Positions 13,077 to 32,969 of a DNA stretch of 35,843 nt are shown one piece after another. The notes under the pieces were generated by a model. The model did no database searches and was not told the origin of the DNA. It worked only from the letters and a program-made list of their open reading frames with translations. The position numbers and the translations under genes are program-made. The first letter of the stretch is position 1. Every line of letters begins with the position of its first letter. Source of the stretch: Syntrophomonadaceae bacterium (lineage in GTDB: Bacteria; Bacillota; Syntrophomonadia; Syntrophomonadales; Syntrophomonadaceae); assembly GCA_012511795.1 (NCBI GenBank), contig JAAZFJ010000084.1:1-35843 (forward strand), given 5' to 3'.

Positions 13077-13084
13077 GAATAAAA

Positions 13085-13139
13085 CGGGAAAAAATACGGA
13101 AAAAAACGGGAAAAAATCGGGAAAAAATCGGGAAAAAAT
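13085..13139. repeat. Phased A-tract repeat (predicted bent DNA)
   Basis: Five units of roughly CGGGAAAAAAT follow each other: 13085-13096, 13097-13106, 13107-13117, 13118-13128 and 13129-13139. The A6-A7 tracts are centred at about 13091, 13103, 13113, 13124 and 13135, so they repeat once per helical turn, the arrangement that gives intrinsic DNA curvature. The repeat lies between the last early gene and a terminator. Confidence 0.85.
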
Positions 13140-13166
13140 AAGGAATCATAATAGGTAACTAACATA

Positions 13167-13172
13167 TATACT
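13167..13172 (+). promoter_or_regulatory. Candidate -10 box downstream of bent DNA
   Basis: TATACT (one mismatch to consensus) lies 28 bp after the last A-tract. No good -35 box is found at 13144-13149. The curved A-tracts in the upstream position could act as UP elements or bind an activator. Transcription from here would meet the terminator at 13187 almost at once. Confidence 0.35.
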
Positions 13173-13186
13173 AAAAACGTGGAATA

Positions 13187-13211
13187 GGCTCTGGGTCGCC
13201 AGGGCCTTTTT
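13187..13211 (+). terminator. Rho-independent terminator at the end of the early region
   Basis: GGCTCTGG (13187-13194) pairs with CCAGGGCC (13199-13206), 8 bp with one G-U and a 4-nt loop, followed by TTTTT (13207-13211). It closes the early operon, or attenuates a promoter at about 13167. Confidence 0.85.
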
Positions 13212-13231
13212 GCATGGCTAAGTGGGAAACT

Positions 13232-13309
13232 ACATCCTGGGTATTGCATCCTGGCTAAACCTTCCCGGCCAGGGTGTATGATACTTGCCGGGGCGGGGGC
13301 TGGGGATGT
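13232..13309 (+). promoter_or_regulatory. Leader with alternative RNA pairings
   Basis: Upstream of the second recombinase, ACATCC (13232-13237) can pair with GGATGT (13304-13309), enclosing CATCCTGG/CCAGGGTG (13247-13254 with 13269-13276). CATCCTGG is present twice (13233-13240 apart from one shared base, and 13247-13254). CCCGGC/GCCGGG (13264-13269 with 13287-13292) would compete. Competing stems suggest an attenuator or protein-binding leader, but folding was judged only by eye. Confidence 0.4.
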
Positions 13310-13330
13310 AATTATTAGGAGTGAACAGTA

Positions 13331-16368: not shown

Positions 16369-18046
16369 TTATCTGATTGAGTATTATGAAAAATGCAAGG
16401 CGGGAAAGATCCTGATCGGCAAGGAACTGATGACGATGCTGGAAATCCTGATGGCAGATATGGAGGATCCGGCCTATCGTTTCGATCCAGCTGAGGCCCA
16501 TAAGCGGATCACGTTCATTGAGAAAGAATGCAAGCATAGTATTTCTCCTTTTGCCGGGCATCCTTTTCTTTTAGAAATAAATCAGAAGGCGCTCAGGGAA
16601 GCGATATACGGCTTTTATATGAACATTGAGGGAAGATGGCTGAGGCGCTTCACTGAAGTCTTATATATGGTAGGAAGGAAAAACGGGAAGACGACTGAAG
16701 TGGCAGGGGACGGCAATGCTGAATTCTTCTGCGGGAACATGGGCACCAACATTCTTTGCGCTTCCAATGACTATGAACAGGCAGGGCTGGTATTTGATGA
16801 GATCAATAATATGCGGGAGGAAAGCCCCAAGTTGGTTAAAGTCAGCCGAAAAACCATCAAAGGTATTTTCATGGGCAACCCGAAGCAGAAGAAAAAGAAA
16901 GGTAAATTCAGCCGGCAGAATAAGGCCAAGATCAAGAAGCTATCGGCCAAGACCGGAGCTAAAGAAGGAAAGAATGTAGATGTTGCCTTTGTGGATGAAG
17001 TCCATGAAATGAAAGATGACAGCCTGGTCCGTCCGATCAAGCAATCGATGTCAACAAAAGATGAACCTTTATATTGGGAAATAACCACTGAGGGTTTCAC
17101 TGAAGACGGGTACCTGGATAAAAGGCTGGCTGATGCCAGGCGGGTCTTAAAGGGAGAGCTTCACCGGCCCCGGTGGCTAATCTGGCTTTACACCCAGGAC
17201 AGTGAGGAGGAGATCTGGCAGAACCGGGACAGCTGGGTGAAGTCAAATCCCAACCTGGGGGTGGCTAAAAAGTGGCACTACCTGGACGGCCTGATCGAGG
17301 AAGCGAAAACTGACAGCGGTACCCGGGCCTTTATGCTGGCCAAGGATTTTAATATTAAACAATCCAATGCGCAGGCCTGGCTGCAGCAGGCTGAAATTAT
17401 AAACCTAGAGACCTTCGACATTAAAGATTTTGCCGGAGGTTTTTATATTTCGGGCAATGACTTTGCGGAGACTACTGACTTATGCGCCAGCGATCTGCTG
17501 CTGAAAAAACCAAATGATAAGCGGGTTTATTTTTATTCTCGGTATTGGATTCCGGAAAGTAAATTGATAAATGCTCCGGATGATGCAGACTATCGCGGGT
17601 GGGAGCGCGCGGGACTCTTGACGATCGTACCGGGGAACGCAGTGGAAAGTTCGATGGTTGCTGATTGGCACTATGAATTATTAAAAGAATACGATCTGAA
17701 ACCATTTAAAAGCGGTTATGATAACCGATTCGCCAAGGATTTTCAGAACAGATATATAGAGGTATTCGGGGATAAAATAGCAATCAATATTCCCCAGGAA
17801 CCAAAAGTATTAAACAATCCTATGAGGACCCTGGAGGCTGATCTCAGAGATAAGCTGGTCATATATAACAACAATCCTGTAAGCTTCTGGTGCTTATGCA
17901 ATACCGGCATAAAGCTGGATAACCTGGGGCGGATTATGCCGTGCAAGATGCATGCAACTAAACGTATTGACGGTACCGCATCCAAAGTTATAGCTTACGC
18001 AACTCTGGAATGGTACCGGTCAGAATTTATGAGCTTAATCGGATAG
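16346..18046 (+). CDS. terL: Terminase large subunit (HK97 type)
   Basis: About 566 residues, the normal length. ATPase: Walker A VGRKNGKTT (109-117), Walker B VDVAFVDE (211-218). A Lys-rich stretch (about 179-210, with KQKKKKGKFSRQNKAK) precedes Walker B. Nuclease domain: SGNDFAETTDLCA (first catalytic Asp) and later conserved blocks to the C-terminus. It powers DNA packaging and cuts concatemers. The start is uncertain: ATG 16346 or 16355 (ribosome site GAGG at 16339-16342); both overlap the small-subunit gene. Confidence 0.95.
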   Translation: MALMNTHSYLIEYYEKCKAGKILIGKELMTMLEILMADMEDPAYRFDPAEAHKRITFIEKECKHSISPFAGHPFLLEINQKALREAIYGFYMNIEGRWLRRFTEVLYMVGRKNGKTTEVAGDGNAEFFCGNMGTNILCASNDYEQAGLVFDEINNMREESPKLVKVSRKTIKGIFMGNPKQKKKKGKFSRQNKAKIKKLSAKTGAKEGKNVDVAFVDEVHEMKDDSLVRPIKQSMSTKDEPLYWEITTEGFTEDGYLDKRLADARRVLKGELHRPRWLIWLYTQDSEEEIWQNRDSWVKSNPNLGVAKKWHYLDGLIEEAKTDSGTRAFMLAKDFNIKQSNAQAWLQQAEIINLETFDIKDFAGGFYISGNDFAETTDLCASDLLLKKPNDKRVYFYSRYWIPESKLINAPDDADYRGWERAGLLTIVPGNAVESSMVADWHYELLKEYDLKPFKSGYDNRFAKDFQNRYIEVFGDKIAINIPQEPKVLNNPMRTLEADLRDKLVIYNNNPVSFWCLCNTGIKLDNLGRIMPCKMHATKRIDGTASKVIAYATLEWYRSEFMSLIG

Positions 18047-18061
18047 GGGAGAAGGTGAAGA

Positions 18062-19783
18062 ATGATAGTTCTAGATTATTTAAAAAATGTTTTTAAAGGG
18101 ATAGGGCAAGAGCGTCAGTATAGAAAATGGCTGATGAATGGTGTGCCGCTATTTACGAGTTTTGGGAAGGATATCTACTTATCTGATTATGTTAATAATG
18201 CCATTGACCGGATAGCCAGCGAGATCAGTAAGATAGAGTTAAAAAGTATTGTGCAGAACGGGGATGTGCTTAAGGTCCAGAATGATGATATAACCAGGCT
18301 GTTTCGTTTTAAACCTAACCCGCTGCAGACGACCAGCGATTTCTTTTCCAGTGTGGAGTGGCTGCGGCGAAAATATTGCAATGCTTTTATTTATCCGCAG
18401 TATCAGATTATATCTTTACCGGATGGGCGGCAGTTTAGAAAGTATATAGCGTTTTATCCGCTCAAGCCCCAGGCAGTTTATATCGGTGAGAATAATGGGG
18501 CGGTGTGGGAGATCCGCATGGACTTTGAGGATGGAAGTAGTTATACATTGCCTTATGCGGACTTGATTCATCTGCGCTGGCGCCGCGGGGCTAATACGAT
18601 AATAGGCGGCGGGGATGATTATGGGGGCGTTAATAATTATGATGTGCTCCGCACCATTGATGCTCTGGATAAGACCATCCAGGGGTTGCCGAAAAGTATT
18701 GAGGCCAGTCTGCAGATCAAAGGTGTTTACCATGCCAAGACATTAGCTGAGGCTCAAAAGCTGGCTGCCATCCGGGACGATTTTGAGAGTCATATTACGA
18801 CCAGCAAAAGCGGCATAGTGGCAACGGACCTGGCCGGCGAATTTACACCGGTAAATATAAACGCTCCGGAAATCCCGGACGCTGCTTTAAAATTCCTTAA
18901 GTCTGTGATCCAGGAGCGTTATGGTGTGTCGGCGGCTATATTATCCGGAGATTATAACGGCGATCAGCATAGTGCATTTTATCAGACTGCTATCGAGGAT
19001 TTTATAGTGCAATTTGAACAGGCCTTTACGGCCTGTGTGTTTACTGCCCGGGAGCAGGATGTAGGGCACCGGGTCAAGGGTTATTACAGTAAAATCAACT
19101 ATATGGCTACACAGGACAAGATCCAGCTGGCCAATATCGCCAAGGAAACCGGCATCATGATGCTCAATGAAATTAATGAGATGTTCGGGATTCCACCTTT
19201 TGAGGGCGGTAACCGGCGGCTGCAGAGCCTGAACTATGTCAATATCGAGGACGTGGATGCCTACCAGAAGGGAAAGGCCGGGGTAGGCGATAGTAAGCCA
19301 AAGAAGGAAGACGATGAGGAAGAGGAAGGCCGGGCGTTGAATATACGGTTTTCATTAGAATCAAGCCCCCTTTCCGGCGTGGATATTAGGGCAGATAAAA
19401 AAGACCTGGATAAGGTAAAGCAGATAATCAAGGCCTTATCCAAGGGGGAAAGGAAAGAACTGGGCCCCAGGTATTTCTATGACGACGCACAATACAGAAA
19501 GGTCCTTGAAGAAGACGATGAATTGATTGGTTTTATTGAAAATAGGGCTACAGGTAAGAAGGGTCATTTTAATTTAGCTATTCACCCCGATTATAGAGGA
19601 AAAGGATATGCTGAGAAAATCGTCAAAAAGGCCGTAAAAGACGCGGGTAAGCTAGACCTGGATAAAATCTATTGGATAACTTCATCAGGCAATAAGGCAT
19701 CCCGGGCGTTGGCAGAAAAAATGGGATTTGTTTTGAAGAAGGAAGACGATGATGAAGTCAGGTATGTTTACGAATTGGATTAA
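18062..19783 (+). CDS. HK97-type portal protein with C-terminal GNAT acetyltransferase domain
   Basis: A 573-residue protein. Residues 1 to about 400 are an ordinary HK97-family portal (LSDYVNNAIDRIASEISKIE, the LRWRRG and SAAILSGDYNG regions, NEINEMFGIPPFEGG). After an acidic Lys/Glu linker (about 405-424) comes a second domain (about 440-573) with GNAT hallmarks: FNLAIHPDYRGKGYAEKIV (503-521, acetyl-CoA-binding R-x-x-G-x-A/G type loop at 512-517) and NKASRALAEKMGF (544-556). The frame is continuous. The fused domain would sit at the portal vertex in about 12 copies. The ATG at 18062 follows GGGGAGAAGGTG. Confidence 0.9.
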   Translation: MIVLDYLKNVFKGIGQERQYRKWLMNGVPLFTSFGKDIYLSDYVNNAIDRIASEISKIELKSIVQNGDVLKVQNDDITRLFRFKPNPLQTTSDFFSSVEWLRRKYCNAFIYPQYQIISLPDGRQFRKYIAFYPLKPQAVYIGENNGAVWEIRMDFEDGSSYTLPYADLIHLRWRRGANTIIGGGDDYGGVNNYDVLRTIDALDKTIQGLPKSIEASLQIKGVYHAKTLAEAQKLAAIRDDFESHITTSKSGIVATDLAGEFTPVNINAPEIPDAALKFLKSVIQERYGVSAAILSGDYNGDQHSAFYQTAIEDFIVQFEQAFTACVFTAREQDVGHRVKGYYSKINYMATQDKIQLANIAKETGIMMLNEINEMFGIPPFEGGNRRLQSLNYVNIEDVDAYQKGKAGVGDSKPKKEDDEEEEGRALNIRFSLESSPLSGVDIRADKKDLDKVKQIIKALSKGERKELGPRYFYDDAQYRKVLEEDDELIGFIENRATGKKGHFNLAIHPDYRGKGYAEKIVKKAVKDAGKLDLDKIYWITSSGNKASRALAEKMGFVLKKEDDDEVRYVYELD

Positions 19784-30359: not shown

Positions 30360-31049
30360 ATGTCTACTTTATATAATATTGATTTAGGAAATTCTGTTAA
30401 TGATATTAAAAGTGCTCTTAATTCAAACGGATTACTAGGGACTATATATTATGAAGATGCCAGTCACATTGTTATTGATACGCCTTTAGTACCCGATAAA
30501 GTGATACGTATTTCAATTAATGGAAACCTTTACAATACTGTACAAATAGGAAGCTCCTGGAAAAGCGGAACTACTGTAAATGACGTTATTAGCCTCATGT
30601 ATGCGTCAACGGATGTCCCAACTGGGATATTGATGGTAGTGGGGAGTGACTTTTTCTGTTTTTTGCTAAACAGAGGTGATAATCCGTTTGCTTATATTGG
30701 GCGATTAGAAAACGGAGAAATAATTTATTGTGGATTATCAACAATAAATGGACCCGTTGCCGGAAGCATAACAGCAGGCCAATCTATTGCGCCTATAACT
30801 TTCAGACAGGATTTCAGAGACGCTGCAGGTAATGTTTTTGCTGTGCCGTTAATGTGGAAGTATAATTCTACGGGGCAAACCATACAGAACGGACCGCTTC
30901 CCTGCGGAACCCCAGGGGTAAAAGTAGCATCCTGTATACTGACGGGGGTGCCTTATATTCTGGGACCAAATTACATATTAACTAACAGCGCAGTGAGAAC
31001 AAACCGCAGTGATAGTATTTATTCTTCGTTGTTAATTGAATTTAGTTAG
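30360..31049 (+). CDS. Unknown distal virion protein, possibly host-range
   Basis: A 229-residue protein without a recognised domain, mostly beta-strand (VIRISINGNLYNTVQIGSSW; CILTGVPYILGPNYILTNSA). The gene is visibly more AT-rich than the tail genes before it, suggesting recent exchange. Position after Tal and before lysis suits a receptor-binding or baseplate protein. The ATG at 30360 follows a G-run (GGGGGGGGTTATA). Confidence 0.6.
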   Translation: MSTLYNIDLGNSVNDIKSALNSNGLLGTIYYEDASHIVIDTPLVPDKVIRISINGNLYNTVQIGSSWKSGTTVNDVISLMYASTDVPTGILMVVGSDFFCFLLNRGDNPFAYIGRLENGEIIYCGLSTINGPVAGSITAGQSIAPITFRQDFRDAAGNVFAVPLMWKYNSTGQTIQNGPLPCGTPGVKVASCILTGVPYILGPNYILTNSAVRTNRSDSIYSSLLIEFS

Positions 31050-31085
31050 AGGATATGGAAATAGTTTTTGGTGGCTGCACTTACA

Positions 31086-31114
31086 TTGACAAATAAACCC
31101 ATAAATTATATATT
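31086..31114 (+). promoter_or_regulatory. Strong internal promoter
   Basis: Consensus -35 TTGACA (31086-31091), 17-nt spacer, -10 TATATT (31109-31114, one mismatch). It lies in a gene-free 187-bp region between tail and lysis genes and faces a small membrane-peptide gene. Such a strong vegetative promoter should not need the late regulator, so it may fire in the lysogen. Confidence 0.85.
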
Positions 31115-31127
31115 GAATAGAACCCTG

Positions 31128-31217
31128 CCCCACCATATGGCAACATATGGACTTCTACTAGCGTTCGGCAGCGCTTCGGGGGATGTCATGTCTAGTGATA
31201 GTCATGGTGGTAGAAGT
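31128..31217 (+). ncRNA. Structured RNA leader with crossing stems
   Basis: CCACCAT (31130-31136) is complementary to ATGGTGG (31204-31210), and ACTTCTAC (31151-31158) to GTAGAAGT (31210-31217). The order a-b-a'-b' would give a pseudoknot, or two alternative folds. CATATGG is repeated (31134-31140 and 31144-31150), and an AGCG/CGCT stem lies between. It follows the promoter at 31086 closely and ends 19 nt before the ATG at 31237. Folding was not computed. Confidence 0.5.
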
Positions 31218-31236
31218 GATTAGGGAGGGGATGCGT

Positions 31237-31362
31237 ATGCTGATTTTCAGCCTTGGTGAGTTAACAGATTGGATAAGGCTTTTAGGCTTTATAGTAACTT
31301 TGTTTCAACTACTCCATGGCATCCTCGCCCTCGATTTGAGGGTCAGAAAAAATGTTATTTGA
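31237..31362 (+). CDS. 41-residue membrane peptide, type I toxin-like or holin-like
   Basis: The peptide (MLIFSLGELTDWIRLLGFIV, then about 20 more residues ending RVRKNVI) has one hydrophobic segment and a basic C-terminus. GGGAGGGG lies 6 nt before ATG 31237; another ATG at 31231 directly touches that site. A promoter and structured leader precede it and a terminator overlaps its end, making an autonomous unit. Size and charge pattern recall type I toxins and small holin-like peptides. No antisense RNA promoter is obvious. Confidence 0.55.
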   Translation: MLIFSLGELTDWIRLLGFIVTLFQLLHGILALDLRVRKNVI

Positions 31363-31363
31363 G

Positions 31364-31388
31364 CCGCTCCAGGTGGGGCGGTTATTTT
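31364..31388 (+). terminator. Rho-independent terminator
   Basis: CCGCTCC (31364-31370 counted with its leading C) pairs with GGGGCGG (31375-31381), 7 bp with one G-U, loop AGGT, followed by TTATTTTATTT. It begins two bases after the stop of the 41-residue gene. Confidence 0.75.
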
Positions 31389-31408
31389 ATTTCCGGGAGG
31401 GGATGGGA

Positions 31409-31768
31409 TTGGGCGCTCAAGAATTTGTGACGTTGTTGAATGAGATAGGGGGCAAGCTGGCCGAACCGGCTAAGCATGTACTTGAAATATGGATAAGGCA
31501 GATCATGATATTCGGAATAGTGGATATAGTAGTAGGGATAATTTTTTTCTTTGTGGGGCTAATCTTTTTCAACATGTGGCTGAATGAGCCGGAAGAATCA
31601 AAAAACCGGCGCCCGCCAGATGATATAAGCACATTGGCTTTTTTGGCGTTCATTGGTTTTATAGGCGGTGTATTTGGATTAGGACTGGTTTTGCGAGGAT
31701 TTATGTTGCTGCTGAATCCCGAATATTGGTTTGTAACTGACGTGCTTGGTTTTGTTTTTGGAGGATAA
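31409..31768 (+). CDS. Two-TM membrane protein of the lysis region
   Basis: A 119-residue protein with hydrophobic segments at about 33-55 (MIFGIVDIVVGIIFFFVGLI) and about 70-95 (LAFIGFIGGVFGLGLVLRGF). I start at TTG 31409, 8 nt after GGGAGG; ATG 31403 is too close to that site. It precedes the holin gene and may be an antiholin or accessory lysis protein. Confidence 0.6.
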   Translation: MGAQEFVTLLNEIGGKLAEPAKHVLEIWIRQIMIFGIVDIVVGIIFFFVGLIFFNMWLNEPEESKNRRPPDDISTLAFLAFIGFIGGVFGLGLVLRGFMLLLNPEYWFVTDVLGFVFGG

Positions 31769-32350: not shown

Positions 32351-32969
32351 CAGCGGCCTTAAAAAGCGAAGCAGCACCCGAAGAGCAATCATCCACCATT
32401 CTGCTTCCCCTGATGTGCCGGCCAGCACTATTCACCGCTGGCACCTGGGTCAGGAGTGGAGCGGCATCGGGTATCATTTCGTGATCCGGGTTAATGGTGC
32501 GGTGGAACGAGGCAGGCCTGTGTGGGCAATTGGGGCTCACAGCGGGGTGAAAGGGAATGGGGACAGTATAGGTATTGTTTTAACCGGTAATTTTGAGACC
32601 GGAAAACCTACTGCAGCACAGATGGCGTCCCTGGTATGGCTGCTGTCGGAGTATCTGCCGGCGACATATGGGAAGCTTACGGTGGCTGGGCATAAAGATA
32701 TTATGCAGACGGCGTGCCCGGGGCGTAATTTTCCCTGGGCTGAGTTAAAAAACAGATTGGAGGTGGCCAGCGTGCCGGATTGGATGCAAAAGCTGATGGT
32801 CAAATGCGGTAGGGCAGGAATCATCGACCCTGCTCATGGTCATAACCCGAATGATACCAGTACAAAATGGTTTGTCCTGGCCGTGATGGTGAACCTGGCT
32901 TTAGTCATGCTGAAGGCCGTAAAAAACCCGGCCAGGCATGATGAGCTGATAAGAATTTTGGAGGAGTAG
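32313..32969 (+). CDS. N-acetylmuramoyl-L-alanine amidase (endolysin)
   Basis: A 218-residue endolysin. Residues about 20-145 form an Amidase_2/PGRP domain with zinc ligands H28 (AIIHHSAS), H127 (AGHKDI) and C135 (TACPGRNF), and YHFVIRVNGAVERGRP. The last 70 residues (about 155-218) are an uncharacterised tail with a hydrophobic helix (FVLAVMVNLALVMLKAV), perhaps a peptidoglycan-binding or membrane-associated part. The ATG at 32313 follows GGAGGTGATAAT. Confidence 0.93.
   Translation: MSNQILETNLQFNSGLKKRSSTRRAIIHHSASPDVPASTIHRWHLGQEWSGIGYHFVIRVNGAVERGRPVWAIGAHSGVKGNGDSIGIVLTGNFETGKPTAAQMASLVWLLSEYLPATYGKLTVAGHKDIMQTACPGRNFPWAELKNRLEVASVPDWMQKLMVKCGRAGIIDPAHGHNPNDTSTKWFVLAVMVNLALVMLKAVKNPARHDELIRILEE

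What the first reader, a model, noticed from the sequence alone, without database searches (positions are those of the whole stretch)
31128..31217. Crossing complementary segments suggest a pseudoknot or RNA switch
Two perfect complementary pairs (CCACCAT/ATGGTGG and ACTTCTAC/GTAGAAGT) occur in the order a-b-a'-b' with a' and b' touching. They either form a pseudoknot or exclude each other. A repeated CATATGG and an inner stem add structure. The downstream strand ends just before the ribosome site of the 41-residue gene, so the fold could control its translation.
Basis: seen in the sequence. Interest (0 to 1): 0.66.

Follow-up and report, generated by a model that had tools for sequence, protein, structure and literature searches.

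The report
Self-masking leader before prophage mini-gene
A short stretch of a bacterial prophage, flagged as a possible RNA pseudoknot, is better read as the folded start of a small independent message that may hide its own ribosome-binding site before encoding a 41-residue membrane-type peptide; no relative was found, so this rests on prediction.

Summary
The complementary segments are real, but a' (31204-31210) and b' (31210-31217) share one base, so both helices cannot be full length at once. Crossing pairs this long are near chance across the window (9 found; mean 3.75 in 20 shuffles). The pseudoknot is not supported: helix a-a' has predicted probability 0.000 and costs about 6 kcal/mol, because segment a is taken by the hairpin CCATATG-GCAA-CATATGG. 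Helix b-b' (probability 0.999) closes a three-way junction.

A strong sigma-70-like promoter (31086-31114, 11 of 12 matches), a GGGAGGGG ribosome site, a 41-codon hydrophobic ORF (31237-31362) and a terminator hairpin (31362-31383) suggest an autonomous unit of about 275 nt between tail and lysis genes. Predicted folding hides the ribosome site twice: first by the 5' end, then by a sequence inside the ORF. Both together are uncommon: 2 of 400 shuffled controls, and 3 of 470 phage genes with both at 0.8 or more. Each feature alone is not rare, and thresholds were set after seeing the target.

This resembles hok/aapA type I toxin mRNAs, but no antisense RNA, toxicity or homologue was found. Covariation could not be tested.

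The parts
31086..31114 (+). sigma-70-like promoter TTGACA-17-TATATT; start of transcription inferred near 31121
   Evidence: 11 of 12 consensus matches; one of 3 sites with 11 or more of 12 in the window, both strands; mean 0.7 per shuffled window, 40 shuffles. Start site inferred from spacing.
31123..31134 (+). 5' strand CCCTGCCCCACC: predicted nascent anti-Shine-Dalgarno (31123-31130), later able to pair with the terminator's 3' arm (31127-31134 with 31372-31379)
   Evidence: pairing of the ribosome site with the first 16 nt 0.84-0.85 in prefixes ending 31230-31320; pairs with the terminator arm at 0.27-0.50 in the full transcript; 8-nt exact complement
31133..31150 (+). hairpin A: CCATATG, GCAA loop, CATATGG
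   Evidence: probability 0.999; inverted repeat I10. It uses segment a of the reported crossing pair.
31151..31217 (+). three-way-junction domain closed by reported helix b-b' (31151-31158 with 31210-31217)
   Evidence: b-b' probability 0.999 in the leader and 0.93-0.99 in full transcripts for nine assumed 5' ends; 0.18-0.19 in prefixes ending 31331 and 31340
31204..31210 (+). reported segment a' (pairs with 31130-31136 only on paper)
   Evidence: exact complement, overlaps b' at 31210; predicted pairing 0.000
31223..31230 (+). Shine-Dalgarno GGGAGGGG
   Evidence: sequence; 7 of its 8 bases at least 98% paired in the full predicted transcript, 31226 unpaired
31237..31362 (+). 41-codon ORF MLIFSLGELTDWIRLLGFIVTLFQLLHGILALDLRVRKNVI (alternative ATG 31231, 43 codons): one hydrophobic stretch, basic end
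   Evidence: hydropathy up to 1.87 over 19 residues. No family in Pfam, NCBIfam or PADLOC, only phrog_35160 at E 0.019. The codon score (43-codon form) does not settle whether it is coding.
31319..31335 (+). anti-Shine-Dalgarno inside the ORF, pairs with 31219-31234
   Evidence: pair probabilities 0.71-1.00; inverted repeat I2, 85% over 13 nt
31362..31393 (+). terminator-like hairpin AGCCGCTCC-AGGT-GGGGCGGTT with ATTTTATTTC tail, abutting the ORF's stop codon and directly before the next ribosome site
   Evidence: similar motif at tail/lysis junctions in L002, L003, L119

Best explanation
The reported segments lie in the 5' leader of a small autonomous transcription unit inserted between the tail genes and the lysis genes of a prophage (moron-like: own promoter, one short ORF, own terminator). 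The leader is a nested fold, not a pseudoknot. Helix b-b' and hairpin A bring the 5' end next to the ribosome site, which the 5' end masks as soon as it is transcribed. Once the polymerase has passed about 31331, a sequence inside the ORF takes over the masking, and the freed 5' end can pair with the 3' terminator arm. The message is thus made silent and kept silent; translation of the 41-residue membrane-type peptide would need trimming, unfolding or a factor. This is the logic of hok/aapA type I toxin mRNAs. Shown: sequence parts and computed folds. Inferred: transcription start, translation, function of the peptide and the release step.
For: Promoter 11/12. GGGAGGGG, 41-codon ORF, terminator in order within 275 nt. 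Fold of 31121-31394: z -3.28, 0 of 200 shuffles as stable, repeated as -3.23, 1 of 300. Two-stage masking in prefix folds: 0.84-0.85 by the 5' end up to 31320, 0.85-0.87 downstream from 31331. It holds for nine assumed 5' ends, although masking by the ORF falls to 0.63 when 221 nt upstream are included. With ribosome site and terminator kept and the rest shuffled: both stages in 2 of 400, both plus 5'-3' pairing in 0 of 400; at relaxed thresholds, all three in 5 of 400. Real phage genes with a ribosome site: 3 of 470 reach 0.8 on both, 8 of 470 reach 0.7. In L112 (capsid 67% identical) the last tail-side ORF and an XhlA-like ORF (my naming) are only 18 nt apart, with no such unit.
Against: No homologue of leader or peptide, so no covariation and no conservation. 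Single features are common: ribosome site as hidden in 45 of 150 controls, 5'-3' pairing in 10 of 150; (nascent masking; masking by the ORF; 5'-3' pairing) of 400. Thresholds were set after seeing the target. Folding significance depends on the ends chosen: z -0.68 for 31100-31260 (43 of 200), -1.27 for 31121-31240 (21 of 200), -0.75 for 31081-31321. The other strand also folds well (z -2.15, 4 of 300). The ORF's codon score does not separate it from spurious frames. No antisense promoter above 8 of 12 was found near it. L112's tail genes are not recognisably related, so its missing unit is weak evidence.
Confidence: 0.38

Rival explanations
1. Chance fold: a real or accidental promoter in orphan spacer DNA, with G-rich ribosome sites that pair easily; the leader has no function of its own.
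For: Crossing pairs near chance over the window; each masking feature alone is common; significance depends on end points; no conservation found.
Against: Whole-transcript z about -3.2; both masking stages together in 2 of 400 controls and 3 of 470 genes at 0.8; an 11/12 promoter, ribosome site, ORF and terminator in order.
Confidence: 0.36
2. Translation-coupled attenuator of the lysis genes: the ORF's stop codon (31360-31362) abuts the terminator hairpin, so a ribosome at the stop would block the hairpin and let transcription run into the holin and amidase genes; the folded leader keeps this off.
For: Geometry of stop codon and hairpin; holin and amidase families downstream; a similar hairpin directly before a lysis-side ribosome site in L002, L003 and L119.
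Against: Terminators close to stop codons are ordinary; in L002, L003 and L119 the hairpin recurs without this leader; no expression data.
Confidence: 0.12
3. H-type pseudoknot or a-a'/b-b' switch.
For: Two perfect complementary pairs in crossing order.
Against: One shared base; a-a' probability 0.000 and about 6 kcal/mol cost; never formed in the prefixes tracked or with other 5' ends.
Confidence: 0.04
4. The segments are coding sequence: an ORF of 51 codons (31068-31223) runs through them and ends just before the ribosome site.
For: Open frame ending 8 nt before the next ORF's first ATG.
Against: Codon score -0.16 bits per codon, below all 140 pieces of likely real genes and below 65% of 169 spurious frames; no well-placed ribosome site (my reading); no homologue. 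Caution: the neighbouring tail gene also scores low (-0.08).
Confidence: 0.06

Closest known systems
aapA3/IsoA3 and aapA1 type I toxin mRNAs of Helicobacter pylori (PMC6733600, passages read)
   Same: short hydrophobic ORF (for aapA recalled); ribosome site masked in sequence during transcription, then in the full-length RNA; 5'-3' long-distance pairing
   Different: no antisense RNA, toxicity or conservation shown here; no sequence relation known; here the final mask lies inside the ORF and the 5'-3' pairing is only about half formed in the prediction
hok/sok type I system (referred to in PMC6733600; details recalled)
   Same: metastable 5' structure, ribosome site masked by a downstream strand, 5'-3' pairing of a silent full-length mRNA
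   Different: no sok-like antisense RNA or overlapping reading frame found
Type I toxins of Clostridia and Bacillus prophages, such as CD0956.2/RCd10 and txpA/RatA (PMC6563280, passages read)
   Same: prophage location, 28-60 residues, one membrane segment, charged C-terminus
   Different: no convergent antisense promoter found; C-terminus is not lysine-rich; no family match
Prophage moron loci (PMC7067206, passages read; promoter-ORF-terminator definition recalled)
   Same: own promoter and terminator-like hairpin, placed between late phage genes
   Different: same strand as the late genes; expression in the lysogen is unknown

Membership tests
H-type pseudoknot | two crossing helices that form together | tested here: not met
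   shared base 31210; a-a' probability 0.000, nested fold about 5-6 kcal/mol better (crude estimate)
Known RNA family (Rfam 15) | match at the curated score | tested here: not met
   only a tRNA at 70-144 in the whole window; two matches far below threshold at E 2.3 and 3.9
Type I toxin-antitoxin system | small hydrophobic peptide ORF with a ribosome site | tested here: met
   41 codons, hydropathy up to 1.87 over 19 residues, GGGAGGGG
Type I toxin-antitoxin system | antisense RNA antitoxin | tested here: inconclusive
   no opposite-strand promoter above 8 of 12 near the unit; other promoter types not covered
Type I toxin-antitoxin system | toxicity of the peptide when expressed | not testable with these tools
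   needs a laboratory test
Type I toxin-antitoxin system | sequence match to a known toxin family | tested here: not met
   none in Pfam, NCBIfam or PADLOC; phrog_35160 (unknown function) only at E 0.019. Not strictly defining: toxins of C. difficile and B. subtilis lack sequence similarity to each other (PMC6563280).
hok/aapA-type self-masking mRNA | ribosome site masked in nascent and full-length RNA, with 5'-3' pairing | tested here: inconclusive
   predicted; joint feature rare in controls, single features not; no probing data
Prophage moron | own promoter, ORF and terminator between phage genes | tested here: met
   consensus scans only; flanked by tail-side and lysis genes
Prophage moron | expressed in the lysogen, dispensable for the phage | not testable with these tools
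   no RNA data held

The most novel reading that the evidence does not exclude
An orphan prophage unit, unrelated in sequence to any known type I toxin family searched, has arrived at the hok/aapA strategy of passing ribosome-site masking from the 5' leader to the ORF during transcription; in this position it could also gate readthrough into the lysis genes, through its stop codon at the terminator.
Probability: 0.13. Interest if true: 0.55.

Novelty: new member of a known kind. Interest (0 to 1): 0.3.

Why it matters
If real, it adds an independent example of mRNAs silenced while being made, at the boundary between tail and lysis genes of a prophage. The tests are simple in vitro ones on a 275-nt RNA. 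If not, it shows how readily G-rich ribosome sites give switch-like predictions from one sequence.

Tried and rejected
Rejected: the pseudoknot. ORF of 51 codons as coding. A 43-aa homologue in G002 (E 0.003): it lies antisense to a release-factor-2-like ORF (my naming of the translation), so treated as chance. Weak hits of the 51-aa frame in 19 of 100 relatives besides the own genome, all at E 0.086-0.9, treated as chance. mcrA RNA match, opposite strand, E 2.3.

Led nowhere: DNA and protein searches of the phage collection (one search gave one match at E 10); viral contigs with five queries from this junction; genome contigs with the holin; 63 genomes of the order and 398 of the phylum with the downstream membrane protein and with the 43-residue form; a covariance model of 31133-31217 on 63 genomes and 21 of the held sources. 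Class and order turned out to be the same 63 genomes (one search repeated). Weak relatives of the membrane protein in 6 of 398 genomes were not followed. DNA hits other than L002, L003, L007, L013 and L015 were not read.

Limits: the pseudoknot energy is a hand estimate with a penalty recalled from memory (9.6 kcal/mol). 'Cotranscriptional' here means equilibrium folds of prefixes, not kinetics. The genes used for the codon score were picked by me from the ORF list; one (32380-32969) was skipped because its length is not a multiple of three. Of 476 genes, 6 were dropped because the sequence was too short at an end or held other letters. The model R1 rests on two identical rows of the same stretch, so it is a one-sequence model.

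Full report
What was checked. Over the whole window, crossing pairs of this size occur 9 times, against a mean of 3.75 in 20 shuffles; most of the others lie inside ORFs. On its own the pattern is weak evidence.

Folding. In the leader, b-b' and the hairpin CCATATG-GCAA-CATATGG each form with probability 0.999, and a-a' with 0.000; forcing a-a' costs 5.9 kcal/mol. Segment a is used by the hairpin and, upstream of it, by the 5' strand that reaches the ribosome site. b-b' closes a three-way junction. A crude pseudoknot estimate is 5-6 kcal/mol worse than the nested fold (the penalty is recalled, not computed). The pseudoknot reading is therefore set aside.

Surroundings. The window is a prophage: a tRNA at 70-144, an integrase at 174-1547, large terminase, portal, protease, capsid, tape measure and tail proteins, then holin and amidase. 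The reported stretch lies in the gap between a tail-side ORF ending at 31049 (best PHROG match: tail fiber protein, E 0.017) and a membrane protein from about 31403 (phrog_1486, listed under moron and host takeover, E 3.1e-11). In that gap are, in order, a promoter-like TTGACA-17-TATATT at 31086-31114, the leader, GGGAGGGG at 31223, a 41-codon ORF at 31237-31362 and a terminator-like hairpin at 31362-31383 with a T-rich tail. Sites with 11 or more of 12 promoter matches number three in the window; the other two, at 2303 (minus) and 2950 (plus), diverge, as lysogeny and early promoters do (that reading is an inference). In L112, whose capsid is 67% identical (Peptococcaceae bacterium UBA6129), the last tail-side ORF and an XhlA-like ORF (my naming) are 18 nt apart and no such unit is present, though its tail genes are not recognisably related.

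Proposed mechanism. In equilibrium folds of growing prefixes the ribosome site is masked by the first 16 nt (0.84-0.85) until 31320 and by downstream sequence (0.85-0.87) from 31331 onward; in the full RNA the partner is 31319-31335, with pair probabilities of 0.71-1.00. The freed 5' end can pair with the 3' arm of the terminator at about 0.3-0.5. Assumed 5' ends from 30900 to 31126 give the same picture, weakest (0.63) for the longest.

Controls. With the ribosome site and terminator kept and the rest shuffled: nascent masking in 60 of 400, by the first 16 nt in 3 of 400, masking by the ORF in 39 of 400, 5'-3' pairing in 29 of 400, both masking stages in 2 of 400, both plus 5'-3' pairing in 0 of 400, and 5 of 400 for all three at relaxed thresholds. 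A simpler measure, how far the ribosome site is hidden at all, is matched by 45 of 150 controls. Among 470 phage genes with a ribosome site, 3 reach 0.8 on both stages and 8 reach 0.7; at 0.85 on both there are none, and the target itself (0.845, 0.853) just misses. The joint feature is therefore uncommon, at about 1%, but it was chosen after seeing the target. Stability is likewise sensitive to end points: z is -3.2 to -3.3 for 31121-31394, -2.4 for 31121-31230, -1.27 for 31121-31240 and -0.68 for 31100-31260. Of 297 sliding windows of 241 nt, 14 have a lower z than the best local one (31201-31441, -2.31).

Comparison. The order of events matches the published working model of aapA3, with two successive ribosome-site-masking structures during transcription and then a silent full-length RNA with 5'-3' pairing (PMC6733600, passages). 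The peptide fits the general description of Gram-positive prophage type I toxins: 28-60 residues in B. subtilis and 34-59 in C. difficile, a transmembrane domain and charged C-termini, without sequence similarity between the two groups (PMC6563280, passages). Morons are prophage accessory loci often highly expressed in the lysogen; one candidate there is transcribed from its own promoter (PMC7067206, passages). Membership in type I toxin-antitoxin systems is not claimed: no antisense RNA, toxicity or family match was found. 'It works like' is an inference with modest support.

Verdict.

Noticed in passing
31362-31406 in the window; L002 1501-1533; L003 543-566; L119 4243-4260: A terminator-like hairpin ending GGGGCGGTTATTTTATTT (one base shorter on the G run in L002) sits directly before the ribosome site of the first lysis-side gene in the window and three other loci; read in different frames, so the nucleotides rather than a peptide seem kept. 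A further exact match (L118, other strand) does not share the context by eye. A somewhat similar hairpin lies before the holin in L052.
   Followed up: partly
31384-31410: The T-rich tail after that hairpin can fold back on the next gene's ribosome site; 31355-31410 folds with z -3.89, 0 of 200 shuffles.
   Followed up: no
18062-19783: The portal protein carries a C-terminal GNAT acetyltransferase domain (Pfam 1.2e-14, residues 472-556). In the phage collection none of 53 records with a match covers 80% of the query, and the 12 listed end at residues 384-413.
   Followed up: partly
13081-13321, 18001-18241, 2641-2881: The most stable RNA folds of the window relative to shuffles (z -4.2, -4.1 and -3.5, 40 shuffles each).
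   Followed up: no
31223-31239 and 31395-31411: Two successive ORFs begin with the same GGGAGGGGATG, each with a second in-frame start codon six bases later (ATG 31237, TTG 31409).
   Followed up: no
70-144 and 174-1547: A tRNA next to a tyrosine-integrase gene suggests an attachment site in the tRNA.
   Followed up: no
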